From Larkinella rosea (GTDB lineage Bacteria > Bacteroidota > Bacteroidia > Cytophagales > Spirosomataceae): a stretch of DNA of 64,000 bases. The translations under genes and the position numbers were made by a program. A model generated the notes under the pieces. The model did no database searches. It was given only the letters and a program-made list of their open reading frames with translations, and was not told the origin of the DNA. Positions within the stretch are counted from its first letter, which is position 1; the number at the start of each line of letters is the position of its first letter. The DNA lies in NCBI RefSeq assembly GCF_003858635.1, contig NZ_RQJO01000015.1, positions 372,001 to 436,000 on the forward strand, written 5' to 3'. This document shows, one piece after another, positions 1-64,000 of the stretch.

Positions 1-903
1 CTCGCTACGGGCGATTATAAATACCATTTATTGCGCATATTACCCATTTTTCAACAGGGAAAACCGGCGCGCTGGGTTGGTACGTTTACGGACATCCATC
101 CGCAGAAATTAGCCGCCGAACTGCTGGAGCAAAAAGTTGAATTACGAACGAAAGAACTCCTGGTTAAAAACCTGGAACTGGAACGAAGCAACCATGAGCT
201 TCAGCAATTTACCTGGGTTGTTTCGCACGATTTAAAAGAACCGCTTCGGAAAATACAGATTTTGAATGACCTGATTAAAGAAAAGTATTTATCCGGAAAT
301 TCAGAAGCAATAAGCTACCTCGATCGGTCCATTAATTCATCGGCCAGGATGTCCGGTTTGATCAATGATTTGTTGTCGTATGCCCAGTTATCGACCCCGG
401 CTTTATTTCAGCCGACTAATTTGAGCCATTTGCTCAACGAAATTCTGGTTGATTTTGACGAAATTATTCATGCCAAAAAAGCCGTAGTTACGATCGACCA
501 ATTGCCGGTGATCGATACCGTACCCGGGCGCATCCGGCAGGTTTTTCAGAACCTGCTCAGCAATGCACTGAAGTTTTCTAAAAAAGATATCCCACCCGTT
601 ATTCGCATCACGTCTGAGCGTATTGCCGAAAAAAACGTGGATAGCGAACGGAATCCGGATGGCGGTTTTTATCGTATTGTGGTGAGTGACAACGGGATTG
701 GATTCGACGAAAAATTCATGGATCGTATTTTTGTCATCTTCCAGCGTTTAACCGACCGGGCGAGTTACGAAGGGACCGGCATTGGTCTGGCTATTGCCAA
801 GAAAAATATGGATAAACACAATGGAATTATTTCTGCCAGAAGTCAGGTCAATGAAGGTAGCCAATTTATATTGATTTTGCCGATTCACCAGATAAACGAA
901 TAA
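1..903 (+). CDS. Sensor histidine kinase, C-terminal part (5' end outside window)
   Basis: Partial gene: the frame is open from base 1 and the first visible residues read as the end of a PAS/PAC sensor fold (motif WVGTFTDIHPQ). A short coiled coil (visible residues about 40-65) leads to a HisKA domain with H box WVVSHDLKEPL (His76). A HATPase_c domain follows with N box NLLSNALKFS (Asn188), DNGIGFD and GTGIGLAI. There is no attached receiver, so phosphate would go to a separate protein. The visible part has no membrane segment. The next gene begins 27 bp downstream, and the five genes up to base 6351 look like one signalling operon. The input signal cannot be read from this fragment. Confidence 0.93.
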   Translation, partial: LATGDYKYHLLRILPIFQQGKPARWVGTFTDIHPQKLAAELLEQKVELRTKELLVKNLELERSNHELQQFTWVVSHDLKEPLRKIQILNDLIKEKYLSGNSEAISYLDRSINSSARMSGLINDLLSYAQLSTPALFQPTNLSHLLNEILVDFDEIIHAKKAVVTIDQLPVIDTVPGRIRQVFQNLLSNALKFSKKDIPPVIRITSERIAEKNVDSERNPDGGFYRIVVSDNGIGFDEKFMDRIFVIFQRLTDRASYEGTGIGLAIAKKNMDKHNGIISARSQVNEGSQFILILPIHQINE

Positions 904-930
904 AAAGACCGGGTTCATAAGCGCGAAGGT

Positions 931-3900
931 ATGCCGCAATCGACTAATAATTCCGTTATCCGACAATTACAGATTGTCTTTTCCTTTTCCATATTGTTGC
1001 TGTTGCTCAGTTTGGTGGCTTCTTTTTACAGCACCCAGAAACTGATCAGCAATTCTCAGTTAGTAAATCATACCAATCAGGTATTGATCGAAGCGGAGAA
1101 CATTATATCGTATGTCAAAGATGCAGAAACCGGCCAGCGTGGATTTATCATTACGCTCGATCCGCTTTTCCTACAGCCTTATAATGGGGCCTATGAAAAA
1201 GTACAGGCCAGTTATAATTCCGTCAGAAATATGACAGCTGATAATCGCATTCAGCAAAAGAGCCTTTCGGAAGCCAAGACATTATTTGATGCGAAGTTTG
1301 TCCAGATGCAACGCATTATCGACATGGCAAAACGAAATAAGTACTTTGTCAATGATACGATTTCGCGGCAGAGTGAAATGATACGGGGAAAGAAGATTAT
1401 GGACGATCTTCGATCCTTGATCAACCAAATTAAAATGGATGAAAATGCCTTACTGAACAGGCGGATTGAGCAGCAGCAAATTTACATTACGTATACGCCC
1501 TATCTGCTCGTTATAGCAGCATTTATATCGGTATTGATTACCGCCAGCGCTTATTTACGGATTAAAAAAGACCTCGACGATCGACTTGCCAAGCAAAAAT
1601 TAGCCGAAGAAAAATACCGCGAAACCGCTGCAAGAATTACCGTCATGGAGGACATAACGTCCGACATTGCCGAAGGAAATTACGCCATCCGAAGTGAAGA
1701 TAACAAAGACGATGAACTGGGTCGAATTGCCCGGGCATTGAACACGATGGCGACGTCGCTGGAAACCACTTTTACCGATTTAAATAATAAAAACTGGCTG
1801 CAAACCGGCACGGTTAACTTAAACGAAGCCATTCGGGGGGAGCGGGATCTGGAAAAACTCGCCGACAACCTGATTGAGACGTTAACCAGTTACATCAATG
1901 CGCCTTTGGGAACGGTTTACATTATCGATAGCGATTCGAGTTTTAAACTGGCGGGAAGTTATGCAGCAACCGACGCACCGACTACGGTTAAAATCGGCGA
2001 AGGACTGGTTGGCGAGGTTATTAAAAGCAGAAAGCCGCTTCTGGTTGATAACCTGCCCGCCAATTACCTGAACGTCAATTCGTCGTTAGGACATACTCCG
2101 CCCGTAGCCCTGATTATTGTGCCGCTGGTGTATGCCCGCACGTGCATTGGAGTCATTGAAATCGGTTTTTTGAAGAAACCCGAACCGCTGGAAATCGAGT
2201 TTCTGGAAGCCAACCTCGAAACCATTGCCATTGGCGTCAATGCTGCTTTGGATTACGTGAAACTTCAGAATTTCCTGGAAGAAACCCAGGCGCAATCGGA
2301 AGAGTTGCAGGCCCAGCACAACGAGCTGGAAAATGTGAATGCGGAGCTGGAAGCGCAGTCGCTGAAACTACAGGCGTCAGAGGAAGAGTTGCGGGTGCAG
2401 CAGGAAGAATTGCAGCAAACCAATTCGGAACTCGAAGAACGCAGCGTTTTGCTGGAAGAAAAGAACGAGGAAATTCAACGGAAAGCGGAAGAACTGGAAC
2501 TGACGACCCGGTATAAATCCGAATTTCTGGCTAATATGTCACACGAATTGCGGACGCCCCTCAATTCGATTCTGTTGCTGAGCCGGTTGCTGGCCGAAAA
2601 CAACGAAGAAAATCTGTCGGGCGATCAGATCGATTACGCCAAAGTGATTCAGTCGTCCGGGAACGGCTTGCTCGGGTTGATTGATGAAATTCTGGATCTT
2701 TCCAAGATTGAAGCCGGTCAGATGAAGCTGGAGTACCTGGACGTAGCACTTCCCGAAATAACCGATGAGGTTCAGTCTTTGTTTGCGCCACTGGCGAAAG
2801 ATAAAGGGCTGGATTTTAACGTAATTGTTGAGAAGGACGTGCCGGCAGTGATTGAAACCGATAAGATGCGGTTGGGACAAGTTTTGAAGAATTTGATTTC
2901 CAATGCATTGAAATTCACGTCGAAAGGGAGCGTAACATTGACCATAAAACGGCCCGAAAATGCGGATTCAATGCTCAGCTTTATCGTGAAAGATACCGGC
3001 ATTGGCATACCGCCGGAAAAACAGCAACTTATTTTTGAGGCTTTTCAGCAGGCCGACGGCTCAACCAAACGGAAGTATGGCGGCACCGGTTTAGGCTTGT
3101 CCATTAGCCGGGAATTGACAAAGCTGCTGGGTGGCGAAATTGTACTTTTTAGCAAAGTCAACGAAGGGAGCGAGTTTACGGTAACCATTCCCACGAGCAG
3201 TTTGCCCGCGGCTAATTTGCCGGGGAAAACCACTCAATATGTGAACCGGAGCCCCGAGCCCGCAGCTGTCACCGAGGTTACCGGACCGGATCAATACATC
3301 AGCACAACCATTCCGGAAAGTATTCCGGACGACCGGAATGCGATTACGGAGCGCGACAAAACGATCCTGATTATTGAAGACGACACCAATTTTGCCAAAT
3401 CGCTGCTGGATTATTCCCGGCAGAAAGGGTACAAAGGCATTGTTGCCGTTCGGGGTGATGAAGGGCTCAAACTGGCCGGAATCTATAAACCGCTCGGGAT
3501 TTTACTGGACATTCAATTACCAATCATGAGTGGATGGCAGGTGATGGACGCCCTAAAAGCCGATCCGCAAACCCGGCCTATTCCGGTACACATTATGTCG
3601 TCGCACAAATTAAAAAATGAAAGTTTGCTGAAAGGAGCGGTCGATTTCGTGGATAAACCGGTCGCATTCGAGCAGATGCAGGAAGTCTTTAAAAAGATTG
3701 AATACGTTTTGAATCGGACGAGTAAGAAAGTGCTGATTATTGAAGATAATCCCAAACACGCCAAAGCCCTGGCGTATTTTCTGGAGACGTTCAACATTCA
3801 TTCCGAACTGAAAAGCAACGTGCCGGAAGGGGTGAATGCATTGCAGAAAGAGGAAATCGATTGCGTTATTTTAGACATGGGTATTCCGGATCCCAAAGCC

Positions 3901-4536
3901 TACGAAATACTGGAAGAAGCCAAAAAAAATCCGGGTCTGGAAAACCTGCCGATTATCATTTTTACCGGCAAAAGTCTTTCGCTGGCCGAAGAATTAAAAA
4001 TTAAGAAATACGCCGATTCGATCATTATCAAAACCGCTCATTCCTACCAGCGTATGTTGGATGAAGTGTCGCTTTTCCTCCATTTGGTCGAAGACAACAA
4101 GAAAACCGGTACGACCAGCAATGATTTCAAAAAACTGGGCGCCTTGAGTCAGGTACTGGCGAATAAAACCGTGTTGGTTGCCGATGACGACGTTCGGAAT
4201 ATTTTCTCACTTTCGAAGGCCCTGGAAACGTATAAAATGAACGTCGTTACGGCCTTGGATGGGAAAGAAGCATATCAGAAACTTCAGGAAAATCCGAATA
4301 TCGATGTGGTTTTACTGGACATGATGATGCCGCAGATGGATGGCTACGAAACTGCTAAAAAAATCCGGGAAAATCACCAATGGAGGAATTTGCCGGTTAT
4401 TGCCGTTACCGCAAAAGCGATGACGGGCGACCGGGAAAAATGCATTCAGGCGGGCGCATCCGATTACATTACCAAGCCTGTTGACATTGATCAACTGATG
4501 TCTTTATTGCGGGTCTGGCTCTATGAACGTTCCTGA
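931..4536 (+). CDS. Hybrid histidine kinase: CHASE3-HAMP-GAF-HisKA-HATPase-three receivers
   Basis: A 1201-residue membrane-bound hybrid kinase. TM1 (about residues 14-33) and TM2 (about 184-206) bracket a CHASE3 sensor with the motif DAETGQRGF. A HAMP-like linker (about 225-290), a GAF domain (about 300-445) and a long Glu/Gln-rich coiled coil (about 445-530) follow. HisKA has the H box MSHELRTPL (His538), and HATPase_c has the N box NLISNALKF and GTGLGLSIS. Three receivers end the protein. The first has LLDIQLPIMSGW and the third DMMMPQMDGY. The middle one has LDMGIPDPKAY, lacks the usual M-P-x-M-D-G loop and is probably divergent. The third receiver closely resembles the stand-alone receiver encoded next. 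Expected to sense at the membrane and relay phosphate along the operon. Confidence 0.95.
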   Translation: MPQSTNNSVIRQLQIVFSFSILLLLLSLVASFYSTQKLISNSQLVNHTNQVLIEAENIISYVKDAETGQRGFIITLDPLFLQPYNGAYEKVQASYNSVRNMTADNRIQQKSLSEAKTLFDAKFVQMQRIIDMAKRNKYFVNDTISRQSEMIRGKKIMDDLRSLINQIKMDENALLNRRIEQQQIYITYTPYLLVIAAFISVLITASAYLRIKKDLDDRLAKQKLAEEKYRETAARITVMEDITSDIAEGNYAIRSEDNKDDELGRIARALNTMATSLETTFTDLNNKNWLQTGTVNLNEAIRGERDLEKLADNLIETLTSYINAPLGTVYIIDSDSSFKLAGSYAATDAPTTVKIGEGLVGEVIKSRKPLLVDNLPANYLNVNSSLGHTPPVALIIVPLVYARTCIGVIEIGFLKKPEPLEIEFLEANLETIAIGVNAALDYVKLQNFLEETQAQSEELQAQHNELENVNAELEAQSLKLQASEEELRVQQEELQQTNSELEERSVLLEEKNEEIQRKAEELELTTRYKSEFLANMSHELRTPLNSILLLSRLLAENNEENLSGDQIDYAKVIQSSGNGLLGLIDEILDLSKIEAGQMKLEYLDVALPEITDEVQSLFAPLAKDKGLDFNVIVEKDVPAVIETDKMRLGQVLKNLISNALKFTSKGSVTLTIKRPENADSMLSFIVKDTGIGIPPEKQQLIFEAFQQADGSTKRKYGGTGLGLSISRELTKLLGGEIVLFSKVNEGSEFTVTIPTSSLPAANLPGKTTQYVNRSPEPAAVTEVTGPDQYISTTIPESIPDDRNAITERDKTILIIEDDTNFAKSLLDYSRQKGYKGIVAVRGDEGLKLAGIYKPLGILLDIQLPIMSGWQVMDALKADPQTRPIPVHIMSSHKLKNESLLKGAVDFVDKPVAFEQMQEVFKKIEYVLNRTSKKVLIIEDNPKHAKALAYFLETFNIHSELKSNVPEGVNALQKEEIDCVILDMGIPDPKAYEILEEAKKNPGLENLPIIIFTGKSLSLAEELKIKKYADSIIIKTAHSYQRMLDEVSLFLHLVEDNKKTGTTSNDFKKLGALSQVLANKTVLVADDDVRNIFSLSKALETYKMNVVTALDGKEAYQKLQENPNIDVVLLDMMMPQMDGYETAKKIRENHQWRNLPVIAVTAKAMTGDREKCIQAGASDYITKPVDIDQLMSLLRVWLYERS

Positions 4537-6353: not shown

Positions 6354-7130
6354 TTACTGTTCCTCCACATTTCCCGCTCCCAATTCCTGAAATAACGTCT
6401 GCCAGTATTGCGTCACCGCCGGATTGTTTTCTTTGACCGATGCATTGGGCGCAAACGGTAAAATCATCGAAATATCGGGGCTGCCAATGGTGTACTGCTT
6501 CAACTGACCGGCGTCGGCTTTGGCCCATTCCTCCGCCTGTGCGTTGTCTTTGGGGGGTGTTTTATGGAAATCCCGGCGCCCGGCGCGGTAGACACTTTCC
6601 ACCATGTCGCTCAGGTAATACACCTTCACCGTCGCACCGGTTTCGTTGGCTTTGGCAATTACCGGCAAACTGGCCCAGATATCGGTTTCCTTGCTCGACG
6701 ACGACGGATTGGGAGCTGCCAGTTGCTGCAACACGCGCTGACGGATGGCGGTTTTTTCGCGGCCCAGCGATAAATCGAAACTGGTTTGGGCGGCTTCGCG
6801 GTCGGTGGCGTTGGCGCTGCTGATGTCTTCCATTTCCGAGCGCGTCGTTACTGAGAGCGCGCGGGCCTTTGACGTATTTTCGTGGATGAAATAAACGTCC
6901 AGTTTATCGCCTTTGTTCTTGACATTCTGTTCGATAATCTCGTTGACCGCTCCCTGGTATTTCTGCGCAACAAATGCTTTGTTGGCATTGACGCTGACGG
7001 ATTTATCCAAAAAAATCAGCGTATAGATGGGCTCGGTTTTGGCCGTTTTCGGATCGCCTTCTTTTCCCGAATCAGACGAACAGGCCGCGAGAGTCAGGAG
7101 CAGAACGCAGCTAAAAACTATTTTTCTCAT
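6354..7130 (-). CDS. Lipoprotein with VWA-like MIDAS motif
   Basis: A 258-residue lipoprotein. The signal peptide ends in the lipobox LAAC (Cys17), followed by a Ser/Asp-rich tether, so the mature protein is membrane-anchored. Near residue 40, IFLDKSVSV fits the D-x-S-x-S metal-ion-dependent adhesion motif that opens von Willebrand A-like folds. A later strand (VKVYYLSDMVES) would fit the second metal-coordinating loop. No enzyme motif was seen. It stands alone on the minus strand, convergent with cheB, with 247 bp to the divergent amidohydrolase gene. I cannot name a specific function. A VWA-like binding role is inference from one motif and the predicted strand pattern. Confidence 0.8.
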   Translation of the reverse strand: MRKIVFSCVLLLTLAACSSDSGKEGDPKTAKTEPIYTLIFLDKSVSVNANKAFVAQKYQGAVNEIIEQNVKNKGDKLDVYFIHENTSKARALSVTTRSEMEDISSANATDREAAQTSFDLSLGREKTAIRQRVLQQLAAPNPSSSSKETDIWASLPVIAKANETGATVKVYYLSDMVESVYRAGRRDFHKTPPKDNAQAEEWAKADAGQLKQYTIGSPDISMILPFAPNASVKENNPAVTQYWQTLFQELGAGNVEEQ

Positions 7131-7377
7131 AGTTGCTTAATAATCATCAGATTTCCGGTTGCCGAAACGACGACAGCGGTATTTGTAAAACTTTCCCCAC
7201 AGTGAGTTGTTTGGCGCTGGCGTGTCGATCCGGAATAATTTGTATTTTCTCTTTCAATAATTATCCGAATCAGTGCTTTTATCGATCTCGATTTAAAACC
7301 GTATTCCGGAAAATCAAATGTACCAACAAACTCTGTATCTTGCTTAATATGCTGATCAACAAACCTTCTCTTACGGT

Positions 7378-9003
7378 ATGAACCTTGTTTTTACCCGGTT
7401 TAGTATCCTCGTTCTTGTCGTTATTTCGTTTGCGGTCCGGGTGTCGGCCCAGATCACGAACGCTCCCGCGCGCAACGAAGGCGACGGCCCGCACAAACGA
7501 CTTATTATCCGGGGCGTTACGCTCATCAACAGCACCGGAGCGCCCCCGATCGGGCCGGTAGACATTGTGGTGGAGAAAAACCGCATCGCCCAGATCCGGC
7601 AGGTCGGTCATCCCGGCGTTCCGATCGATGCCAAAAACCGCCCCCCACTGAATCCTGGTGACAAGGAACTGAACTGCGAAGGCATGTATCTGATGCCCGG
7701 TTTTGTTGATATGCACGGCCACATCGGTGGCAAAGCACAGGGAACGCCCTCGGAATACGTTTTTAAACTCTGGCTGGGTCACGGTATTACCACCATTCGC
7801 GACCCGTCGGCGGGCAACGGTCTGGATTGGGTGCTGGAACATCGGGGCAAAAGCGAACGCAACGAAATAACCGCTCCCCGCATTAAAGCGTATACCTCGT
7901 TCGGACAGGGCGCAAAAGAACCCATCACAACGCCGGAGCAGGCCCGGGCCTGGGTGCGCGAAAATGCGAAGAAGGGCGCCGACGGCATCAAGTTTTTCGG
8001 GGCCGAACCGGCGGTTTTTCGGGCGGCTCTGGACGAAAACAAAAAACTGGGCCTGCGTTCGGCCTGTCACCATGCTCAACTGGAAGTAGCCCGCATGAAC
8101 GCACTGGCGACGGCCAAAGCCGGGCTGACGTCGATGGAACACTGGTACGGTTTACCCGAAGCGCTGTTTGAAGACAAAACCATTCAGTCGTATCCGGCGG
8201 ATTATAATTACAACAACGAACAAAACCGTTTCGAGGAAGCCGGAAAACTCTGGCTGCAAGCCGCCAAACCGGGTACAGAAAAGTGGAATAAAGTGATGGA
8301 CGAGCTGATTGCGCTGGATTTTACGATCGATCCGACCTTCAATATTTACGAAGCCAACCGCGAGCTGATGCTGGCCCGCCGGTCGGAATGGCACGATGAA
8401 TACACGCTTCCGGCACTCTGGCGGTTTTACGGACCGAGCCGGATTTCGCACGGTTCCTACTGGCACAACTGGGGCACGGAACAGGAAGTGACCTGGAAGC
8501 GCAATTACCAGCTCTGGATGGCGTTTGTGAACGAATACAAAAACCGGGGTGGCCGCGTCACGACGGGTTCGGACTCAGGCTTTATTTACCAGTTATATGG
8601 TTTTGCCTACATCCGCGAGCTGGAACTGCTGCGCGAAGCCGGTTTTCACCCGCTGGAAGTGATCCGGGCGGCCACGCTGAAAGGCGCGGAAGCCCTCGGC
8701 ATGGCCGATCAGATTGGTTCAGTGGAAGTCGGGAAGTTCGCTGATTTTGTGATTACGGAAGAAAATCCGCTGGCGAATCTGAAAGTGTTGTACGGCACCG
8801 GCGCGATTCACTTGAACGAGAAGAACGAAGTGACGCGGGTAGGAGGGGTGAAGTACACCGTGAAAGACGGTATTGTCTACGATGCCAAACAACTCCTGGC
8901 CGACGTCCGGAAGATTGTCGTCGAGGCCAAACAGAAAGAAAACTTCGAAATCACCCAACCGGGCATGCCGCCCAAACCGGCCAAGCTTTCGGGGGGGAAT
9001 TAA
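7378..9003 (+). CDS. Secreted amidohydrolase-superfamily enzyme
   Basis: A 541-residue exported metal-dependent hydrolase. An N-terminal signal peptide (about residues 1-25, ending VSAQ) precedes a small beta domain and a TIM barrel. The entry metal motif is GFVDMHGHIGG (H-x-H). Later ligands are probably in SACHHAQ and SMEHWYG, and the catalytic Asp in TTGSDSGF. The C-terminal part (GKFADFVITEENPLANL) is the returning beta sandwich typical of cyclic amidohydrolases and imidazolonepropionase-like enzymes. Substrates of this branch include peptides and cyclic amides; the sequence does not settle which. It is single-gene and convergent with an M28 peptidase, separated by a large inverted repeat. 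Confidence 0.9.
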   Translation: MNLVFTRFSILVLVVISFAVRVSAQITNAPARNEGDGPHKRLIIRGVTLINSTGAPPIGPVDIVVEKNRIAQIRQVGHPGVPIDAKNRPPLNPGDKELNCEGMYLMPGFVDMHGHIGGKAQGTPSEYVFKLWLGHGITTIRDPSAGNGLDWVLEHRGKSERNEITAPRIKAYTSFGQGAKEPITTPEQARAWVRENAKKGADGIKFFGAEPAVFRAALDENKKLGLRSACHHAQLEVARMNALATAKAGLTSMEHWYGLPEALFEDKTIQSYPADYNYNNEQNRFEEAGKLWLQAAKPGTEKWNKVMDELIALDFTIDPTFNIYEANRELMLARRSEWHDEYTLPALWRFYGPSRISHGSYWHNWGTEQEVTWKRNYQLWMAFVNEYKNRGGRVTTGSDSGFIYQLYGFAYIRELELLREAGFHPLEVIRAATLKGAEALGMADQIGSVEVGKFADFVITEENPLANLKVLYGTGAIHLNEKNEVTRVGGVKYTVKDGIVYDAKQLLADVRKIVVEAKQKENFEITQPGMPPKPAKLSGGN

Positions 9004-9007
9004 AACC

Positions 9008-9188
9008 GTCTTGAACCGCCGGGCGGCCCCGCGGGATTTCACAGATTAAAGGATTAAGAGGATAGGCTACGCAATCTTTTAATCTCTATATATTCTGTTA
9101 ATCCCTTAATCTGCGTAATCCCACGGGGCCGCCCGGCGGTTCAAGACTGTTAATCCTTTAATCCGCGGAATCCCGGTTCAAGACGGTT
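9008..9188. repeat. Long inverted repeat with GC-rich 16-bp core and extra partial copy
   Basis: Two arms of about 50 bp (9008-9057 and 9098-9147) are inverted copies at roughly 90 percent identity. Each carries the core CGGGGCCGCCCGGCGG (9124-9139, and its complement at 9016-9031). A third, shorter copy of the right arm follows at 9149-9188 and lacks that core. It fills the space between two convergent genes and could act as a bidirectional terminator. The same core recurs at 31383-31398 with different flanks, so it is an interspersed repeat rather than a simple terminator. Confidence 0.85.
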
Positions 9189-9189
9189 A

Positions 9190-10785
9190 TTACGGTTTGT
9201 TACTATCCACGACCAGCTTGTTATCCCGGTTCGCAATTTCCCAGGCGGTGTAAAACACCAGACGGGCGGATTTTTCGGCCAGCTTGAAATTGATTTTCTC
9301 AACGTCGTCGCCGGGCCGGTGGTAGTCGGCGTGGAGGCCATTGAAGTAAAAAATGATGGGAATTTTATGCTTGGCGAAATTGTAGTGGTCGGAGCGGTAA
9401 TAAATTCGCTGCGGATCGCTGGGTTCGTTGTACTTGTAATCCAGTTCCAGCGCCGTGTATTTCCGGTTGGCGTCTTCGCTGATCTGGTGCAGTTCCGACG
9501 ATAGTTTATCGGAACCAATGACGTAAATGTAGTTGTCGGATTTCCCTTCGTGCAGGTCGTCGACGCGGCCCACCATGTCGATGTTCAGGTCGCAGACGGT
9601 TTTATCGAGTGGCAAAACCGGGCTCATGTCGGTGTAATATTGCGAGCCCAGCAAGCCTTTTTCTTCCCCCGAAACCGTCAGGAACAGCAGGCTCCGGCGT
9701 GGGCCGTGACCTTCGGCTTTGGCTTTGGCAAACGCCTGTGCAATTTCAATCACCGATACCGTTCCGGAGCCGTCGTCGTTGGCGCCGTTGTTCACCTGGC
9801 CATCCGGGTTGACGCCAATGTGGTCATAATGCGCCGAAACCACGATCACTTCGTCTTTTTTGTCGGTTCCTTCCAGAAAACCGGCTACGTTGCTGCTTTC
9901 GAGCAACACATCTTTCCGTTCGGCTTTCAGACTGATTTTTCCTTTCAGCGCGCCCGAATTTGCCTTGCCGGTTTTGCTGATTTTGGCAACCGCAGCCTGC
10001 CATTTGGCGGGAGTCGTATTGAGCAGTTCCGCGCCCATTTCCTGCGGAATCAGGAACGTACCGACGGCCCCGATTTTCTCCATTGCCGGTTTGAGACTCA
10101 GCCGGTTAAACCGCCCCATCAAGGCCGTACGTTCGGCTACCAACCGGCGGTAGGCTTCCGGCGATTCGGCCGAAACAATAAAGATTTGCTCGGCGCCCTT
10201 GTCTTTCGCAATCGTCACTTTTTTCCGCAGGTTTTCTTCGCTGCTCCATTCCGAAGGCTTGTCGGAGTTGGTAATCAGGTAGTTGCCATTGGCTTTTTTG
10301 GGTTCACCTTCCAGAATGACCACTGCTTTTCCCTGTACATTCACCTTCGCGTAGTCATTGTAAGTGTCGGTCATAATACCGTAGCCCACAAAAATGGTTT
10401 CGAACGATGCTTCCTGCATCACGCCAAACAACCCGTTGACAATGAAATCCTTCGGATAGGTGTATGTTTTGTCCCCGGCTTTGACGTAAAAATCACCCCA
10501 GGTCTTCTGGTACAGCGTGAACGGCTGGAAATACCCGGTTTTGCCGTCTTCGGTTTTGACAATGGGCTGTAGCTTTTCGGCAGCGAACTGTTTGGCGATG
10601 TAATCGGCGGCTTTTCGCTGGCCGGCTTTCCCGGTTTCACGACCTTCCATATCGTCCGCAGCCAGCACGCGCAGGTGCTTCTCGAGATCCGCTGCCTGAA
10701 TGGTATTGGCGTAATCGGTGGCGGTTTGGGCCGTGGCCAGCTGCGCAAGCAACAGAAAACCGGCACTACAAATCGAATATTTCAT
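9190..10785 (-). CDS. Secreted M28-family zinc aminopeptidase with PA-like insert
   Basis: A 531-residue exported metallopeptidase. A signal peptide (residues 1-19, ending ATAQ) is followed by the LRVLAADDMEGRETG segment typical of this branch. A protease-associated-like insert (about 110-260) comes next, then the M28 core. Zinc ligands and catalytic residues are visible in SAHYDHIG, NNGANDDGSGT, SGEEKGLLGS, NIDMVGR and HADYHRPGDD. It most likely trims amino acids or dipeptides from peptides in the periplasm or outside the cell. It is transcribed alone, with a candidate -7 element 66 bp before the ATG. Confidence 0.94.
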   Translation of the reverse strand: MKYSICSAGFLLLAQLATAQTATDYANTIQAADLEKHLRVLAADDMEGRETGKAGQRKAADYIAKQFAAEKLQPIVKTEDGKTGYFQPFTLYQKTWGDFYVKAGDKTYTYPKDFIVNGLFGVMQEASFETIFVGYGIMTDTYNDYAKVNVQGKAVVILEGEPKKANGNYLITNSDKPSEWSSEENLRKKVTIAKDKGAEQIFIVSAESPEAYRRLVAERTALMGRFNRLSLKPAMEKIGAVGTFLIPQEMGAELLNTTPAKWQAAVAKISKTGKANSGALKGKISLKAERKDVLLESSNVAGFLEGTDKKDEVIVVSAHYDHIGVNPDGQVNNGANDDGSGTVSVIEIAQAFAKAKAEGHGPRRSLLFLTVSGEEKGLLGSQYYTDMSPVLPLDKTVCDLNIDMVGRVDDLHEGKSDNYIYVIGSDKLSSELHQISEDANRKYTALELDYKYNEPSDPQRIYYRSDHYNFAKHKIPIIFYFNGLHADYHRPGDDVEKINFKLAEKSARLVFYTAWEIANRDNKLVVDSNKP

Positions 10786-10850
10786 TGAGTTGTTGTGAAG
10801 AAAATGACAAAGTAAAAAGCAGGAATCGAAAATATCCGTCCCTGCTTGTG

Positions 10851-10858
10851 CAAATATA
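10851..10858 (-). promoter_or_regulatory. Candidate -7 promoter element for the M28 peptidase
   Basis: Read on the minus strand this is TATATTTG, matching the Bacteroidota -7 consensus TAnnTTTG, 66 bp upstream of the peptidase ATG. No clear TTG lies at the expected -33 spacing, so this is a half-site match only. The rest of the 328-bp gap (10786-11113) shows no gene and no other element I trust. Confidence 0.35.
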
Positions 10859-11113
10859 AAACGAAAATGTGGGTTAATTCAGTACCCAAATCAGGGTTGT
10901 TGCACAATCGCCACCGGCTGGATTTTGGGCAATGCTTATAAGTTCTATTTCTGACTTTTGAAGTTTCATCCCGGTTTTTCAAACTCATCTCCGGTCTGCA
11001 ATCGCCATACATCAAAAGTATCCTAAAATGCAACATGCGTCTCAGCAGGGCGAGCCACTAAATCCCACCTTTGCCGGGATTTAACATTCTGTTCTATTCA
11101 ACAACATCTACTT

Positions 11114-11962
11114 ATGGAAAAAATAGTTATTACAGCCTCCGATGGCTATCAACTGAGTGCGCTTTATGCCGCTCCTTCCACTAAAAGCGTGGGCACTATT
11201 GTCATCAGCTCGGCTACCGGAGTTCGAAAAGAATTCTACCTGCATTTTGCGTTTTTTCTCGTTGGTCAGGGGTATACGGTTTTGCTGTATGATTACCGGG
11301 GAATCGGCGGATCGGCCCCGGACGACCTGCGTAAAATGGATGCGTATATGCACGAATGGGGAACCAAAGACATGAATGCGGTTCTTAATTACCTGGTGGA
11401 AGGAAAAGGCCTGACGGATATTATCTGGCTGGGGCACAGCGTTGGCGCCCAGTTGATCGGTTTTCTGGAAAAACCGCACCACATCAGAAAAGTCATTTCA
11501 ATCAATTCGGCGTTGGGATACTGGCGGTATTTTCCGTTTCCGATGAACTGGCTGATCTGGGGACTCTGGTATTTTATTGGCCCCTTAATGGTCAAACTGT
11601 ACGGCTATGGCGTGATGACGAAAATCGGCTGGGGCGAAAACCTCCCGCGTAATATGATGAAGGAATGGCGATCCTGGTGCCTAAACAAAACCTACTTTCG
11701 GGCGTCGTTAAAACAGGCGTTGCAAGCCGATCAGTTTTCGCAGTTTACCACACCGATCACATCCGTCTACATGAGCGACGATTTTATCGCCAATGACAAA
11801 ACCGTGCCGTTGATGTTAACATTTTTCCCGAATGCACCGCAGCGGATCCGAAAGCTGGCGGTCCGGGAATTCACGCAGGAAAAGGTGGGGCACACCGGCG
11901 TGTTTCGGAAGAAATTCCGGCACAACCTCTGGCCGGTGCTGATTGAGGAAATCAAAAAGTAA
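11114..11962 (+). CDS. Alpha/beta hydrolase of the COG4757-like type
   Basis: A 282-residue alpha/beta-hydrolase without a signal peptide. The nucleophile elbow is GHSVGAQ (Ser about residue 106). An oxyanion-side strand is YTVLLYDYRGIGGSAP. The catalytic Asp is probably in SVYMSDDFI and the His in EKVGHTGVF near the C-terminus. A hydrophobic, Trp/Tyr-rich cap (about residues 130-175) probably shapes an apolar substrate pocket. The substrate is unknown; predicted esterases or acyl hydrolases share this layout. It stands alone and is convergent with nadD, 20 bp away. Confidence 0.85.
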   Translation: MEKIVITASDGYQLSALYAAPSTKSVGTIVISSATGVRKEFYLHFAFFLVGQGYTVLLYDYRGIGGSAPDDLRKMDAYMHEWGTKDMNAVLNYLVEGKGLTDIIWLGHSVGAQLIGFLEKPHHIRKVISINSALGYWRYFPFPMNWLIWGLWYFIGPLMVKLYGYGVMTKIGWGENLPRNMMKEWRSWCLNKTYFRASLKQALQADQFSQFTTPITSVYMSDDFIANDKTVPLMLTFFPNAPQRIRKLAVREFTQEKVGHTGVFRKKFRHNLWPVLIEEIKK

Positions 11963-11982
11963 ACCGCGGGCGTTTGACGGGC

Positions 11983-12555: not shown

Positions 12556-12585
12556 AAGCGCAACGGTTTCAGGCCAACTACCCGG

Positions 12586-13185: not shown

Positions 13186-13191
13186 AACCGC

Positions 13192-13491: not shown

Positions 13492-13575
13492 TGGAAAAAT
13501 TTAATTTATTCCAGAAATTGTTATACAATATAGAAACTAATCTATTAACCAAGTATCTATCCCAAAAAGTTTCAG

Positions 13576-23023: not shown

Positions 23024-23163
23024 TGGCAGTGAATTTGGGCAAGGCAGTTTTTATTTTTGGAACAGGAAGTAACGCTTCTGGAAAAATTCCAATCAAATCT
23101 TTGGCCATTACCAGCCCAATGGCTTCTGGTTGGCAACCACTAACTTAACGAACAAATCCCGGA

Positions 23164-23188
23164 TTTGCCAATCAAACCGGTTGGCAAA
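23164..23188. promoter_or_regulatory. Inverted repeat upstream of the CbrC-like gene
   Basis: TTTGCCAA and its exact complement TTGGCAAA are separated by 9 bp, in the 203-bp gap between two minus-strand genes. Additional TTGGCAA-like words lie at about 23124-23130. The arrangement resembles a repressor operator. No T-run follows, so a terminator is less likely. Weak evidence. Confidence 0.3.
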
Positions 23189-23226
23189 GGATTGCTTTTG
23201 GAAGGAAAGAGTTTAAAAACGCAGGA

Positions 23227-23673
23227 TTAGCGTTGCTGCCGAAACCGCATCGTTTCGTACGTCATTTCGATCGGGTCCGCGGATTGTAAAACGCGCGGAT
23301 CGGTGATCTGGATTCGATTACTTGCGAGATAATGATATGCCTTGCCTGCTTCCAACGTAGTGTTGCCCGCCTTGACAACAATGGATTTTTCGATAACTCC
23401 TACTGGCAGCGAAATCTCGTAACTTTTGACTGGAGCTTTGCCCGACGGATTTATGGCATGACGCCTGATTAATGTCGAAAAACGCGGTAACTGTAAAATC
23501 GGCTCGTAAGAAACTGAAACCAGTTGCGGCTGAAACTTTTGTCTGGAAAACCGGGCCACCCGTTGAGCAGATAACGAATCTGAGGCTGAGACGGGAGCGG
23601 AGACGCCGAACGGGAAGGCTGACGCTGACCCGATTACGCCCACCAAAAGAATCAGTGCGAAGACGATTTTCAT
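23227..23673 (-). CDS. Hypothetical exported protein
   Basis: 148 residues from the ATG at 23673. An earlier in-frame start would place 13 polar residues before the signal peptide. The signal sequence is MKIVFALILLVGVIGSASA. The mature part is short and beta-rich (VKSYEISLPVGV, SIVVKAGNTTLEAGKAYHYLASNRIQ), with no Cys and no enzyme motif. The late segment resembles the beta-sandwich stalk segments that sit in secreted Bacteroidota proteins (GNTTLEAGKAY). Function unknown. Confidence 0.65.
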   Translation of the reverse strand: MKIVFALILLVGVIGSASAFPFGVSAPVSASDSLSAQRVARFSRQKFQPQLVSVSYEPILQLPRFSTLIRRHAINPSGKAPVKSYEISLPVGVIEKSIVVKAGNTTLEAGKAYHYLASNRIQITDPRVLQSADPIEMTYETMRFRQQR

Positions 23674-23913
23674 ACGAAGGCCAAAAGAGTGGAATGCGGT
23701 TCTGAAAGACAACGCGTTTTGTTTGATTTTCTTGCTCCGGGATAAACCGGAAAATCAGAAATAACCGGTTGACAATAACCAGATGCAACGAAGCGGGTTT
23801 ATAGCGTAGACAGCCAGAGGAAAGACAAAGTAAAATCTCGTTGATCTTTAGTCGATTAAGTGATTCTCTTTCTTCTTTGGTCCACGTATCAGCATAAAAC
23901 CGTTTGTGGAATC

Positions 23914-24183
23914 ATGCAGGGAGTTATTTCCAAATTGATCAGTATCGTCACCCCGCTGACGTTGATGGCTTTGATGGGCGTTCTGATGGTCGTCAATGGC
24001 ATTGCCCACATGAAACAGGAAAATAATGTCCTGAATTTTTTCTTCGGCATTCCCCTGGCACTGGGCGCATTCGGAGTTCATATGCTGATTCGCCACCTGA
24101 CCCATCACAAGACGGCCTACGTCTGGGCCATCGAATTTATTCTGGTTGGGCTTTTTTGGTACGCTTTTATGTATGTCTGGTGA
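23914..24183 (+). CDS. Small multi-pass membrane protein, unknown function
   Basis: 89 residues from ATG 23914; an upstream in-frame GTG at 23860 would add 18 residues. Three hydrophobic segments are visible: about residues 6-30 (ISIVTPLTLMALMGVLMVVNG), 40-58 (NFFFGIPLALGAFGVHMLI) and 66-86 (AYVWAIEFILVGLFWYAFMYVW). His-rich loop HLTHHKT lies between the second and third. It is likely an inner membrane protein. It is 36 bp upstream of a small exported protein on the same strand. Confidence 0.65.
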   Translation: MQGVISKLISIVTPLTLMALMGVLMVVNGIAHMKQENNVLNFFFGIPLALGAFGVHMLIRHLTHHKTAYVWAIEFILVGLFWYAFMYVW

Positions 24184-24219
24184 ACCCGTTCAAAAGTTAT
24201 TCACCCGTTCTGAAATTTT

Positions 24220-24609
24220 ATGCACAAGCGATTGATTTTCATGGCATTACTGTTTGCGGTTTCGAGCCTTTTGGGTTTTCAGCAAACCGATGGCTGGATG
24301 GGAAAATGGTCGGGGGAGCACCCGGAAGGCGTCACCTACACCATTCAGGTCAATGACAAATACCGGGGAATGAATCTCTGTGAAATCCACGCCGAAGGCA
24401 TTCAGACCTTTTATACCCTGGAGTGCTGGGCCACGGGCGACGCCAATACGCTGAAAGTCTATTACCGTTCCACCAAAGAGGGCGCGTTTTACGCCGGAAA
24501 CCGGGTCAAATTGAACGATCTATTCGTGGTTTTACGGCGCGAAAAAGGCAAAGTCAGTTGGCAGTGGCAGCAGATTTTTGATGGGAAGATTGCGGTGAGG
24601 AAAATGTGA
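24220..24609 (+). CDS. Small exported hypothetical protein
   Basis: 129 residues with a signal peptide (about residues 1-20, ending LLGFQ). The mature part has many aromatic residues and beta strands (WMGKWSGEHPEGVTYTIQV, LKVYYRSTKEGAFY), suggesting a lipocalin-like or small beta-barrel fold. Two Cys (NLCEIH and LECWAT) could form a disulfide in the periplasm. The family is not recognised with certainty. A stem-loop begins within its stop codon and may terminate the transcript. Confidence 0.7.
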   Translation: MHKRLIFMALLFAVSSLLGFQQTDGWMGKWSGEHPEGVTYTIQVNDKYRGMNLCEIHAEGIQTFYTLECWATGDANTLKVYYRSTKEGAFYAGNRVKLNDLFVVLRREKGKVSWQWQQIFDGKIAVRKM

Positions 24610-24662
24610 TACCTCTACTACTTACGAAACAATGCTTTTATTCTTGTCAGTAGTAGCGGTAT
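24609..24662. terminator. Stem-loop after the small exported protein gene
   Basis: Arms 24609-24622 and 24649-24662 match at 13 of 14 positions around a 26-base AT-rich loop. The left arm overlaps the TGA stop. No T-run follows. It may be a weak terminator, or may mark the left border of the AT-rich region that starts here. Confidence 0.45.
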
Positions 24663-24802
24663 TCACCGCGTTTGACTTGATATAGATGAAGCTAATACCT
24701 GGACTACTATTTGTATTTTCCTCTTATCATTAAGTCAGCGACATTTTCGGTACAAAGAGTGGCCTACTTCATGACTCAAAAATACGTCTTTTTGTTTCTG
24801 GA

Positions 24803-25534
24803 TTAGTTTTGGGTACTTTTTAGTTTTCGTCTTAATTGAATAAGTCTGAATTTTATGTTGTCATAAATTAAGCCTATAACTAAGATGGTTGCAGCAAAAA
24901 TTAGCGAGTGAAGTCTAAACTTTGAATATAGAATTCCGCCAATGATACCACCAATAAAAAAGAAGCTAATAATGGTCAGCCGAAGTTTTATTGACGATAT
25001 AAGTTTGTGCTTCTGTTCTTTTTCCTTGTAAAAGAATAATTGTGAAAATTCAATTCCTAAATCTGTGAAAAGACCTGTTAAATGAGTTGTCCTGACGCTT
25101 GCATTTGAGATGGTTGTAACCAATGAATTTTGTAAGCCCATAGCAAAAAGCAAACTAAATGTGATTGCGTTTGGACTTCCAATTACTAAATATTCTCCCC
25201 AGAATCCGATACTAAATAGGATTAAACATTCCATGGAAGCAGGAAATACGTAAATATAATGGTCGTCTTTCCGTGAAATGATTTCAATGAGTAAGCTGGA
25301 AATGAAAGAGCCTAAAAAAAAGAAAAATATGTAAAGGAAATACACAAATCCTTGCCAAAAATTGAGTTTAAAAACTTCTTCTACAAAAAAAGCGAAATGG
25401 CCTGTTACGTTAGTTGTCAACCGCTGAACGGCAAAAAAACCGGCAACGTTGACAATACCTGCAACAAGAGATAATAAAGAAGCAATTTTTAAATTATGAC
25501 TTAATGTTCGTGTCTTACCCTGGTGTCTAAACAT
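24803..25534 (-). CDS. DUF1275/YoaK-family membrane protein
   Basis: 243 residues from ATG 25534, which has a purine-rich GGAAAAA upstream; a TTG at 25564 would add ten polar residues. The start (GKTRTLSHNLKIASLLSLVAG) and the motif NVAGFFAVQRLTTNVTGH are typical of DUF1275. Membrane helices lie at about 18-38, 55-80, 92-115, 120-140, 180-200 and 203-220. The transport or signalling role of this family is unsettled. Base composition is much richer in A/T than neighbours and codon choice differs, so recent transfer is likely. The ending is basic (RLIQLRRKLKS), consistent with a cytosolic tail. Confidence 0.88.
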   Translation of the reverse strand: MFRHQGKTRTLSHNLKIASLLSLVAGIVNVAGFFAVQRLTTNVTGHFAFFVEEVFKLNFWQGFVYFLYIFFFFLGSFISSLLIEIISRKDDHYIYVFPASMECLILFSIGFWGEYLVIGSPNAITFSLLFAMGLQNSLVTTISNASVRTTHLTGLFTDLGIEFSQLFFYKEKEQKHKLISSIKLRLTIISFFFIGGIIGGILYSKFRLHSLIFAATILVIGLIYDNIKFRLIQLRRKLKSTQN

Positions 25535-25709
25535 GGTATATTTTTCCGTCGTTTTTATCGCCAATTATCAATATAATTGACATCAAAGTTGTCTAGGTTG
25601 AAATAAATATTTAAATATGGATTAATTATTAAATAGTCGTATATTTTCTTAGTAATGTATAAGAATTACTTATTTAGTCCGTTTGATACCATTTCCTTAA
25701 TTGAGTAAA

Positions 25710-25913
25710 TTATTCTTTTTTCAGAGTAATAATACGATCTATTAAGTTCAAAGATACTTTTATTTCTTGGCTCATAAATCTCATTGTTGTATGAGTTAAA
25801 GCGTTATAAAATCCTGATAAATCTGAAAGTTGCCAGAATGCTTTATGGCCGTATATTTTCATACTACTCTTTCTAGTATGTTCATTGTTGATTTCTTTTA
25901 GCATTTTGACCAA
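25710..25913 (-). CDS. Small hypothetical protein in AT-rich island
   Basis: A 67-residue frame with a plain ATG, in the AT-rich stretch between the DUF1275 gene and uvrA. It is basic and mostly helical (MVKMLKEINNEHTRKSS, then LSDLSGFYNALTHTT), with no signal peptide and no family I recognise. It could be a real small gene of the transferred segment or a chance frame. AT-rich DNA makes chance frames short, which slightly favours a real gene. Confidence 0.4.
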   Translation of the reverse strand: MVKMLKEINNEHTRKSSMKIYGHKAFWQLSDLSGFYNALTHTTMRFMSQEIKVSLNLIDRIITLKKE

Positions 25914-26089
25914 TCTTTAAATGTAAAAAAATGTCGATTAAAAGTGTTTACTTGCATTGTTATCGAAATAAATAATGCTTATGGTTCTGATTTTAGCCGC
26001 CTTTTTTCTCTGGTTTGTGGCACATACACCAAATACAACAATAGCCGGACAAAAAGCCCGGCTATCAATGCTGATCGTATAAAAACCGC

Positions 26090-36337: not shown

Positions 36338-36348
36338 ACCGAAACCCC

Positions 36349-37852: not shown

Positions 37853-38000
37853 ACCAGCCCACGGTTTCAACCGTGGGGTCGCCGGAATATTGGGCAATAT
37901 ATGAAAACCGTTTTAACGGTTTCGTGAATTCAAAACCGTTAAAACGGTTAAAAAAATGCCGTTTTGTCTCGTTTTCCCACGGTTGAAACCGTGGGCTGGT
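37853..38000. repeat. Nested palindromes after SusD
   Basis: Outer arms 37853-37877 and 37976-38000 are perfectly complementary over 25 bp. Each arm is itself a palindrome (CCCACGGTTTCAACCGTGGG type). Inside lie two further palindromes (about 37905-37922 and 37932-37949) made of AAACCGTT-like words. The element fills most of the 220-bp gap between SusD and the FAD oxidoreductase, which could attenuate transcription into the next gene. Confidence 0.85.
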
Positions 38001-49089: not shown

Positions 49090-49150
49090 AGGGATGAATG
49101 GAAAGAACAGGAGTTGGTCGAAACCGCTCCCGGTTTACCCGATAAAATCG

Positions 49151-52100: not shown

Positions 52101-52198
52101 GTTGTACTTTGGGCCTGAATTTCCCAACCAACCAACAGAAAAAGAACCCGTAGTAGCCAGTGAAAGCTACTTCTCACCTGTAATCGTTTTGATTTCAT
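49151..52198 (-). CDS. SusC-type TonB-dependent receptor without STN domain
   Basis: 1015 residues. The signal peptide (ending WEIQAQ) is followed by a carboxypeptidase-like beta domain (FQGKVTTKSDGKPMPGASVGIVG, SSIGYQTQRQSV). The plug starts at LDEVVVTGTSGATSRKQLG and contains SDPLYIVDGVIVNN, IERIEIIKGAAAAAIYGSRA and VVQIFTKRG. A beta barrel ends TLTAGINATF. There is no STN domain, so it is unlikely to signal through FecR. It pairs with the SusD-like lipoprotein downstream. The ligand is not evident. It heads a two-gene leftward operon with a 215-bp gap to the divergent ABA4-like gene. Confidence 0.95.
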   Translation of the reverse strand: MKSKRLQVRSSFHWLLRVLFLLVGWEIQAQSTTYTFQGKVTTKSDGKPMPGASVGIVGTTSGGISDQTGAYRFTASLAPGTYTLQFSSIGYQTQRQSVTLSQATTVSTNSTLADDALGLDEVVVTGTSGATSRKQLGNTIATVQAKDLQLSAATSIDQALAGKVSGAQITQNSGNPAGGISVRLRGPSTIVGSSDPLYIVDGVIVNNDSRELIDLGGYSQNRLVDINPNDIERIEIIKGAAAAAIYGSRANNGVVQIFTKRGQEGRPTITFSTQFRLSDIRKTLPYNEQPTNFTNATVTDNTQTPVTRYDLQKDIFRTATGHEQYLSVAGGTANTQYFFSGSLFANQGIVRGADFSRASSRMRIQQTLTKWATLSIGSAYTYSSSHEIPNGGINEAYGALTGFIFSNNFINPQPDPATGIYPSTAPVAVVRRTNPLEAIARFDFRQRTSRYIGDAQLNLTPLPGLGIDFTFGLDTYSQLATGYIPPNNTTPSYNAGYSRKSEASVLQLNNDLNIRYQASPTDWLKSTTGIGATVQYDRSFGTGITAQQLGVFGQTINNGANIVAAETRTERSFFGVFAQQTFGLFNRFFVTAAGRVDAASVYGVDNRWQFYPKLSGSYVVSEEPFWKESSLANVLPDFKIRAAWGQAGNLTAIGPYDRFTNYSPVSVGGLVGYAAPAQLGNFSVKPERQTELEIGTDFSLVKNRIGVEFTYYHKEVKDLILNRTLSPSSGYNNRFVNIGTMTNRGFEALVRAIPVETKKVRWNITATYTRNKNITNGVEGNGVLPFAGGFGQVAAVNGYSLGAFYATFFARNPDGSLLLTPGGLPQRERGVQGANGTYTVQRGADGQPSGTILSKVIGNPNPTAIYSLINEVSVGSRWSFRMQWDAMRNFDVFNFTKRVGDRDLYGGLKGYEPELRGEVPKGTSAALFSIFENWIEDGSFAKLRELSVAYTVTPKFWGFRNVRFSVAGRNLLSIDNYSGYDPETNAAGQSNAVRGFDFVEVPIPRTLTAGINATF

Positions 52199-63790: not shown

Positions 63791-63826
63791 AGCAGGGTGT
63801 CGGCAACAGCAATGGGCTGGTGTGGA

Positions 63827-64000
63827 CTAAATCAAAAACCAAAGAATGACTAACAAACCGACCACCGCACTGGCAATGTACGATTGAACCCGGCCATTTT
63901 GCACCGAACGCGTCAGATTACCCAGTCGGTGGGCGAGCCACGACGCGCCGTTGACCAGGCCATCGACAATGGCGCGATCGACCCAGCTGATCATGTGCGC
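63827..64000 (-). CDS. nuoL: NADH-quinone oxidoreductase subunit L, C-terminal end
   Basis: The last 58 codons of a minus-strand gene that enters from the right border. The residues read DRAIVDGLVNGASWLAHRLG then GRVQSYIASAVVGLLVILWF before a TAG stop, which is the C-terminal amphipathic helix and last membrane helix of NuoL. NuoL is the distal proton-pumping subunit of complex I. It lies immediately upstream of nuoM, as expected. The start is outside the window. Confidence 0.88.
   Translation of the reverse strand, partial: AHMISWVDRAIVDGLVNGASWLAHRLGNLTRSVQNGRVQSYIASAVVGLLVILWFLI

What the first reader, a model, noticed from the sequence alone, without database searches (positions are those of the whole stretch)
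1..64000. Heptamer AAAACCG/CGGTTTT is extremely frequent in both orientations
Reading by eye I counted about 20 copies in 38041-41460 (11 AAAACCG, 9 CGGTTTT), about 9 in 7378-9005 and about 10 in 47788-52198. Uniform base composition would give about 0.4, 0.2 and 0.5. The word occurs in all three reading frames (Lys-Thr, Asn-Arg, Gly-Phe and Val-Phe contexts) and on both strands, so codon preference does not explain it easily. Copies also pair within terminator stems (47734-47775, 37905-37949), as uptake sequences do in Haemophilus and Neisseria. Density is lower in the kinase operon (1-4500), the outer membrane locus (44.5-47.7 kb) and the AT-rich island. It could be a Chi-like, uptake or protein-binding word; which one is open.
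Basis: partly seen in the sequence, partly recalled or inferred. Interest (0 to 1): 0.75.

Follow-up and report, generated by a model that had tools for sequence, protein, structure and literature searches.

The report
Larkinella's genome-wide DNA recognition word
A seven-letter DNA word is scattered some 20,000 times through this bacterium's genome and is kept there by evolution, as a genus-specific signature that some unidentified DNA-reading machinery probably recognises.

Summary
AAAACCG/CGGTTTT occurs 185 times in the window and 19,544 times in the 8.17 Mb genome; its reversed control occurs 2,984 times. All 9 genomes of the genus, Larkinella (Bacteroidota), are enriched, and none of 16 genomes from sister genera. 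Genes in all six frames and intergenic DNA carry it; synonymous shuffling cannot explain it. Between two species it has a 7-bp conservation footprint. At fourfold sites losses are 0.22 and gains 2.7 times neutral, as a per-copy fixation bias of S about 2.5 predicts: the highest of 2,970 heptamers. The sparse intergenic data fit this less well. Copies show no clear dependence on neighbours and no leading-strand bias. Pontibacter, another genus, has its own words in three dialects, each kept in its own clade (few events). No full-length type IV pilus ATPase was found, and none of three methyltransferase families stood out.

The parts
1..64000 (.). 185 copies of AAAACCG (98) / CGGTTTT (87) on the + strand, 2.9 per kb, dispersed over the window
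   Evidence: per-2-kb counts
   Evidence: Pfam PF12831; ORFs
7378..9005 (.). 8 copies (4.9 per kb) over an amidohydrolase gene
   Evidence: Pfam PF01979
47788..52198 (.). 10 copies (2.3 per kb) over ORFs 47788-49089 and 49151-52198 (the latter with a TonB-dependent receptor plug domain)
   Evidence: Pfam PF07715
47735..47775 (.). perfect 20-bp inverted repeat (arms 47735-47754 and 47756-47775) between convergent ORFs, one CGGTTTT and one AAAACCG in the arms; terminator-like local case
   Evidence: ORFs; pair counts over larger pieces
37905..37949 (.). stretch downstream of ORF 36334-37827 with one AAAACCG and related AACGGTTT / AAACGGTT stem sequence
   Evidence: ORFs
23024..26080 (.). AT-rich stretch (GC 0.40) with low word density (3 copies, 0.98 per kb); possibly acquired DNA (inference)

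Best explanation
AAAACCG is the Larkinella dialect of a clade-specific DNA recognition word. Shown: the word, on either strand, is over-represented in genes and between genes alike, and at fourfold-degenerate sites it is favoured at fixation by about S = 2.5 per copy. There losses are suppressed at all six positions with data, and gains are promoted at the five where gains could be judged. Inferred: something reads the word as a unit. I think the most likely reader acts in homologous recombination, either as a Chi-type site of the AddAB-like helicase-nuclease found in every genome examined, or as another step that makes DNA carrying the word more likely to be retained or incorporated.
For: Fixation bias: at 21,553 fourfold sites 42 discordant pairs against 189.3 neutral losses and 15.5 neutral gains. 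The equilibrium ratio gives S = 2.50 (95% 2.23-2.80) and predicts 42 events: observed/predicted 1.00 (0.77-1.25). Per position, predicted flux 6.3, 6.6, 6.4, 0.9, 12.0, 7.8; observed 9, 8, 7, 0, 11, 7. Highest S of 2,970 heptamers with enough data; 99th percentile 1.06. Footprint: divergence 0.050 in the 7 bp and 0.122 in the flanks, ratio 0.41 against 0.60-0.91 for eight other words. Clade specificity: 9 of 9 genomes of the genus, 0 of 16 genomes of sister genera. Dialects: G001 prefers AATACCG and AAAGCCG. Pontibacter has AAGTATA, AGGTATAG or AACTATAG in 11 of 13 genomes; AGGTATA is kept in its own clade (losses 6/63.9) and not in AAGTATA species (4/4.8), and AAGTATA in its own species (5/16.9) and not in the other clade (5/2.1). 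Low density in two AT-rich 20-kb stretches (12 and 14 copies, mean 48). PDDEXK_1 protein of 959-1,075 aa in 31 of 31 genomes searched, 30 distinct; AddB is its best family in the two that were scanned.
Against: Intergenic sites: 4 discordant against 24.2 losses and 4.2 gains; fixation bias predicts about 9, a mutational cold spot about 4. For the core AAACCG 10 seen, 15.5 predicted. Over all aligned sites, coding constraint uncorrected, gains are only 1.20 times neutral. No leading-strand bias (1,154 against 1,259 in G000; 211 against 193 in G001), whereas 75% of E. coli Chi sites are on the leading strand (PMC5959072, passages). No repulsion between copies from 30 bp to 6.4 kb, although one site per fragment should suffice for uptake or Chi. 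Discordant sites do not sit in unusually diverged DNA (0.136 against 0.133), so no sign that gains were imported from diverged donors. Sister-genus genomes with the same AddB-like protein have no abundant AAAACCG. AddB-like proteins of G000 and G001 are 82% identical despite the dialect shift (inconclusive). They score far below the curated AddB cut-offs and match no solved structure by sequence.
Confidence: 0.4

Rival explanations
1. Direct, additive selection for dense binding sites of an abundant sequence-specific double-strand DNA-binding protein (nucleoid-associated, or marking the chromosome as self). Each copy adds a little occupancy, so positions over the core genome are about equally good.
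For: S is similar whatever the distance to the next copy (1.97-2.64 in three classes, with 4 to 26 events each) and pair correlation is 0.97-1.07 beyond 30 bp (three low-density stretches left out). No leading-strand bias. Variants AATACCG and AAAGCCG are also enriched, like a binding-site matrix. Coding and intergenic densities alike (2.44 and 2.18 per kb).
Against: About 20,000 sites should freeze the protein's specificity, yet dialects differ within two genera and two Pontibacter genomes have only a weak word. No candidate protein was identified here.
Confidence: 0.27
2. A DNA uptake signal of the Haemophilus/Neisseria kind, read by a type IV pilus component during natural transformation.
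For: Non-palindromic, both orientations, clade-specific dialects, as with the eight Neisseriaceae dialects (PMC3630211, passages). ComEC-type competence protein in 39 of 39 genomes searched, 38 distinct, one with an in-frame stop.
Against: No full-length type IV pilus assembly ATPase: in 15 genomes only short matches (at most 119 of 370 positions, best E 8e-6; 3 of 15 genomes pass the family cut-off that way). Inverted pairs 9 and 8 against about 6 each. About 2.4 copies per kb without repulsion, whereas DUS spacing matches conversion-fragment size (PMC2397512, passages). ComEC is equally present in genera without the word.
Confidence: 0.13
3. A mutation or repair bias that creates or protects the word without any fitness or recombination effect, as modelled for cyanobacterial HIP1 with methylation-dependent mismatch repair.
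For: HIP1 also reaches high density (about one per 1,000 nt) and is tied to orphan methyltransferases (PMC4390886, abstract and passages). The intergenic counts fit a cold spot (4 seen, 4.2 expected). A biased repair process could lower losses and raise gains together, and such a mixture is not excluded.
Against: At fourfold sites a pure gain bias predicts about 189 discordant events and a pure cold spot about 15.5; 42 were seen. Transitions and transversions at several positions are involved. The word is not a palindrome. PF01555 has no match in word-rich G004 and G006, PF00145 none in 5 of 9 Larkinella genomes; PF02384 matches are in all 22 searched, orthology not tested. Other methyltransferase families were not tested.
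Confidence: 0.15
4. A by-product of codon choice, amino-acid content or base composition.
For: Some proteome tilt: Asn-Arg is the most over-represented of 322 dipeptides in the sampled genes.
Against: Six frames and intergenic DNA. 3.75 times a within-gene synonymous shuffle and 2.25 times a junction-preserving shuffle. Most single-letter neighbours near dinucleotide expectation. Sister genera not enriched.
Confidence: 0.02

Closest known systems
DNA uptake sequences (DUS of Neisseriaceae, USS of Pasteurellaceae)
   Same: Short non-palindromic word, both orientations, thousands of copies, itself conserved, clade-specific dialects (PMC3630211 and PMC2397512, passages read).
   Different: 7-bp core rather than 9-10; about 2.4 copies per kb; no full-length type IV pilus ATPase; no clear hairpin pairing; no sign that gains came from diverged donors.
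Chi sites (RecBCD/AddAB recombination hotspots)
   Same: Short asymmetric word, over-represented, species-specific; an AddB-like protein is present.
   Different: No leading-strand bias; about 20 times base-composition expectation against about 6.7 times for E. coli Chi (1,008 against 151, PMC1939737, passages); no biochemical test; sister-genus genomes with the same protein lack the abundant word.
HIP1 (GCGATCGC) of cyanobacteria
   Same: Very high density; replaced by other words in some lineages (PMC4390886, abstract and passages).
   Different: Not palindromic; no methyltransferase stood out in three families tested; the fourfold gain/loss balance fits fixation bias.
KOPS (FtsK-orienting sequences)
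   Same: Short asymmetric over-represented word (recalled).
   Different: KOPS are strongly oriented from origin to terminus (recalled); this word is not.

Membership tests
DNA uptake sequence (DUS/USS) | highly over-represented non-palindromic word in both orientations over the genome | tested here: met
DNA uptake sequence (DUS/USS) | type IV pilus machinery carrying the receptor | tested here: not met
   PF00437: only short matches (at most 119 of 370 positions) in 14 of 15 genomes and none in the other; 3 pass the family cut-off. Other pilus genes not searched
DNA uptake sequence (DUS/USS) | frequent inverted pairs in terminators | tested here: not met
   intergenic pairs within 40 bp: 9 and 8 against about 6 each; one clear case in the window
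DNA uptake sequence (DUS/USS) | word increases DNA uptake or transformation | not testable with these tools
   needs transformation assays
Chi site | RecBCD or AddAB-type enzyme present | tested here: met
   PDDEXK_1 protein of 959-1,075 aa in 31 of 31 genomes searched; the two scanned have AddB as best family, far below the curated cut-offs; AddA not searched
Chi site | orientation bias towards the leading strand (E. coli; not reported for Pseudomonas, PMC5959072 passages) | tested here: not met
   1,154 against 1,259; 211 against 193
Chi site | word attenuates the nuclease and loads RecA | not testable with these tools
   needs biochemistry
HIP-type methylation-linked word | palindrome | tested here: not met
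   AAAACCG is asymmetric
HIP-type methylation-linked word | cognate orphan methyltransferase conserved with the word | tested here: inconclusive
   PF01555 and PF00145 patchy; PF02384 in all genomes searched, orthology not tested; PF07669, PF02086 and others not searched
KOPS | strong replichore orientation | tested here: not met

The most novel reading that the evidence does not exclude
Cytophagales bacteria carry a so far undescribed, type-IV-pilus-independent, sequence-specific self-recognition system.
Probability: 0.3. Interest if true: 0.88.

Novelty: new variant of a known kind. Interest (0 to 1): 0.72.

Why it matters
It adds two Bacteroidota genera to the lineages with genome-wide clade-specific words, and it separates fixation bias from mutational bias for such a word with a prediction that has no free parameter. 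My literature searches (open-licence PMC only, listings capped; one search was on a wrong genus) listed no paper that I recognised as describing either word.

Tried and rejected
Codon, amino-acid or composition effect: rejected. Replication-oriented word: no leading-strand bias; the small tilt is the other way (1,154 against 1,259). Terminator or hairpin element: no clear excess of pairs. Presence of competence: ComEC in all genomes searched, so uninformative; AddB-like likewise. Methyltransferases: PF01555 and PF00145 patchy, PF02384 in all searched but orthology untested. Import of gains from diverged donors: no signal. I first guessed the planctomycete Gimesia from genome size and G+C and spent one literature search on it; gene content and DnaA relatives showed Larkinella. 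A plasmid search with one gene gave a single short hit of no use.

Results that cut against a simple story: raw conservation is not unique to the word (TCCAGAA, unrelated, is shared in 0.752 against 0.759). Without correction for coding, TCCAGAA and CCAGATC have loss ratios nearly as low (0.30, 0.36 against 0.26) and gains of the word are only 1.20 times neutral, so I rely on the fourfold test. There some other words also have low losses (AATCCGG 0.34, CCAGATC 0.36), but without a comparable gain (1.16, 1.14). The first letter of the word is the least constrained (loss ratio 0.59). In the weak-word Pontibacter pair, AAGTATA still shows less divergence than its flanks (0.057 against 0.133, 15 sightings). 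Lys-Thr is no higher than in sister genera (1.41 against 1.40); Asn-Arg is (1.38 against 1.09), but overlapping antisense ORFs were not removed.

Rows dropped: one search read 1 of 60 loci because files hold several records; its figures are not used, one search replaces it. Alignment blocks under 400 bp or 78% identity were dropped (27 kept, 159,798 columns). L025 was left out of the skew count; L017, L021 and L086 (low density) were left out of the pair correlation. Searches are smaller versions. Genome sets each contain one genome under two handles.
Full report
WHAT WAS CLAIMED AND WHETHER IT HOLDS. The window holds 98 AAAACCG and 87 CGGTTTT, the most frequent heptamer pair. Expectations are 26.7 from dinucleotides, 60.2 from tetranucleotides, 118 from pentanucleotides and 171 from hexanucleotides. 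The last is not independent, since the hexamers AAACCG and AAAACC inside the word carry the same excess. The window is a piece of an 8.17 Mb genome. There the word occurs 9,738 + 9,806 times and its reversed control 1,501 + 1,483 times. In 60 sampled stretches plus the window (1,132,525 bases) it occurs 2,695 times against 434 (M1), 917 (M3) and 1,660 (M4). Changing one letter mostly brings the count to about the dinucleotide expectation. The clear exceptions are the first position (2.5 to 3 times), AATACCG, ATAACCG and AAAGCCG; a few others are 1.4 to 1.7 times. T is avoided before the word and A after it.

WHOSE WORD IT IS. Proteins of the window include SusC/SusD-type ones, which points to Bacteroidota. 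The best DnaA relatives are Larkinella terrae (99%), L. punicea (95%) and L. arboricola (94%). Identical match coordinates show that G004 is L. terrae KCTC 52001, G005 is L. arboricola and G007 is L. punicea. All 9 genomes of the genus are enriched (word to reversed-word ratio 3.3 to 6.5). In 16 genomes of other genera of the family the ratio is at most 1.33, and in 14 genomes of other families of the order at most 1.62.

NOT CODONS. Copies lie in all three frames in both senses (527, 214, 299 and 190, 500, 499) and are about as dense in genes (2.44 per kb) as between them (2.18 per kb). The coding copies are 3.75 times a within-gene synonymous shuffle and 2.25 times a shuffle that also keeps codon-junction context. 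Gene calls are from my own simple caller.

MAINTAINED, AND HOW. I aligned 159,798 columns (27 blocks, 87% identity) of G000 with G004. The word is shared in 76% of cases against 44% for an average heptamer, first of 217 words, though closely followed by the overlapping AAACCGG and by the unrelated TCCAGAA (0.756, 0.752). Divergence is 0.050 inside the seven bases and 0.122 outside, ratio 0.41, against 0.60 to 0.91 for eight other words. Over all sites, losses are 0.26 and gains 1.20 times neutral, but coding constraint is mixed in and two unrelated words also have low losses. The test that removes most coding constraint is at fourfold-degenerate sites (21,553). A trinucleotide-matched neutral expectation gives 189.3 losses and 15.5 gains; 42 discordant pairs were seen. 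The pairs are not polarised, so gains and losses are the same events seen from two sides and the informative quantity is their total. A mutational source alone predicts about 189, a mutational cold spot alone about 15.5, and a fixation bias with S = ln(189.3/15.5) = 2.5 predicts 42. Bootstrap over 183 segments gives S 2.23-2.80 and observed/predicted 0.77-1.25. Position by position (six of seven had data) the prediction is 6.3, 6.6, 6.4, 0.9, 12.0, 7.8 and the observation 9, 8, 7, 0, 11, 7, with transitions and transversions both involved. Over 2,970 of 8,181 heptamers with enough data AAAACCG has the highest S (2.40 in that run; 99th percentile 1.06); the best word not sharing its core has 1.44. 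Intergenic sites (9,991) are less clear: 4 discordant against 24.2 losses and 4.2 gains, where fixation bias would predict about 9 and a cold spot about 4; for AAACCG 10 against 15.5 predicted. Mixed mutational biases are therefore not excluded.

WHAT THE COPIES DO NOT DO. They show no leading-strand preference: by GC-skew sign, 1,154 leading against 1,259 lagging in 50 stretches of G000, and 211 against 193 in 20 stretches of the single-contig genome G001 (the link of positive skew to the leading strand is recalled). They do not repel or attract one another between 30 bp and 6.4 kb (pair correlation 0.97-1.07, three low-density stretches left out), and S is similar at all distances to the nearest other copy; observed gains are, if anything, higher near other copies (3.64, 2.14, 1.48 times; 26, 12 and 4 events). 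Intergenic inverted pairs within 40 bp are 9 and 8 against about 6 each. Two overlapping copies forming AAAACCGGTTTT are frequent (16 against a naive 2). Discordant sites are not in unusually diverged DNA (0.136 against 0.133).

DIALECTS. In G001 the most enriched forms of A???CCG are AATACCG (4.5 times M1), AAAGCCG (3.5) and AAAACCG (2.9); in G000 the order is AAAACCG (6.2), AATACCG (3.8), ATAACCG (2.6), AAAGCCG (2.5). Among 80 DnaA loci of 5.8-21.5 kb, Pontibacter stands out with its own words: AAGTATA in six genomes, AGGTATAG in four, AACTATAG in P. populi. Whole-genome counts of ARSTATAR in these 11 of 13 Pontibacter genomes are 6,878-14,391 against 811-1,298 for the reversed pattern. The other two (P. 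diazotrophicus, P. pamirensis) have 3,263 and 3,356 against about 1,700. The 23 other genomes counted are at most about 1.3 times their control. In alignments of the DnaA loci, AGGTATA is kept in its own clade (6 losses against 63.9) and not in AAGTATA species (4 against 4.8); AAGTATA is kept in its own species (5 against 16.9) and not in the other clade (5 against 2.1). In the weak-word pair losses are too few to judge (1 against 2.2; 0 against 1.3), and AAGTATA there still shows a footprint (0.057 against 0.133, 15 sightings). These are small numbers. Adhaeribacter rhizoryzae may carry another, palindromic word, AATATT (not followed).

WHICH MACHINERY. The known partners were looked for. A ComEC-type protein is in 39 of 39 genomes searched (38 distinct; one with an in-frame stop) and a PDDEXK_1 protein of AddB size in 31 of 31 (30 distinct), so neither separates genomes with and without a word. 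Only the G000 and G001 proteins were scanned further; AddB is their best family, far below the curated cut-off. In 15 genomes type IV pilus ATPases are seen only as short matches (at most 119 of 370 positions), although 3 of the 15 pass the family cut-off that way; this speaks against uptake words of the known kind. PF01555 has no match in G004 and G006, PF00145 none in 5 of 9 Larkinella genomes, and PF02384 has matches in all 22 genomes searched (21 distinct), whose orthology I did not test. Other methyltransferase families were not searched.

JUDGEMENT. That the word is favoured at fixation is well supported at fourfold sites. What reads it is inference. I put a recombination-linked reader first because a drive-like bias explains absence from sister genera, change of dialect within genera and spread over the core genome. 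The missing strand bias, missing repulsion and absence of imported divergence count against the simplest versions of it. A dense double-strand DNA-binding protein is the main rival.

LITERATURE. Passages were read in PMC4390886 (with abstract), PMC1939737, PMC3630211, PMC2397512 and PMC5959072; for other papers only search listings were seen. Searches listed no paper that I recognised as describing either word; the library is open-licence PMC only and the listings are capped.

Noticed in passing
L198, L199, L202, L205, L211, L212, L214, L215, L219, L225, L233: Pontibacter genomes carry their own abundant words in three dialects (AAGTATA, AGGTATAG, AACTATAG); two relatives (L206, L208) have only a weak one.
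   Followed up: partly
L220: Adhaeribacter rhizoryzae: the palindrome AATATT occurs 80 times in 12.5 kb against 21 expected (M2); possibly a HIP-like word.
   Followed up: no
L089-L108 (G001): A Larkinella relative prefers AATACCG and AAAGCCG, with T most frequent after AAAACCG: a shifted dialect within the genus.
   Followed up: partly
G000 sample: AAAACCGGTTTT (two overlapping copies) occurs 16 times against a naive expectation of about 2, and same-orientation copies 14-16 bp apart are in mild excess (13, 9, 9 against about 4 each).
   Followed up: no
G000 gene sample: Asn-Arg, Lys-Pro, Arg-Phe and Lys-Thr are among the 12 most over-represented of 322 dipeptides, perhaps a mark of the word on the proteome; against sister genera Asn-Arg, Lys-Pro and Arg-Phe are higher but Lys-Thr is not (rough control).
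   Followed up: partly
G000 contigs C1, C4, C7 (L008, L011, L014), starts of C10 and C14 (L017, L021), and L086: Stretches with low word density: five AT-rich ones, and L086 with GC 0.544 and 21 copies per 20 kb; probably acquired DNA (inference). The word could serve as a foreign-DNA clock.
   Followed up: no
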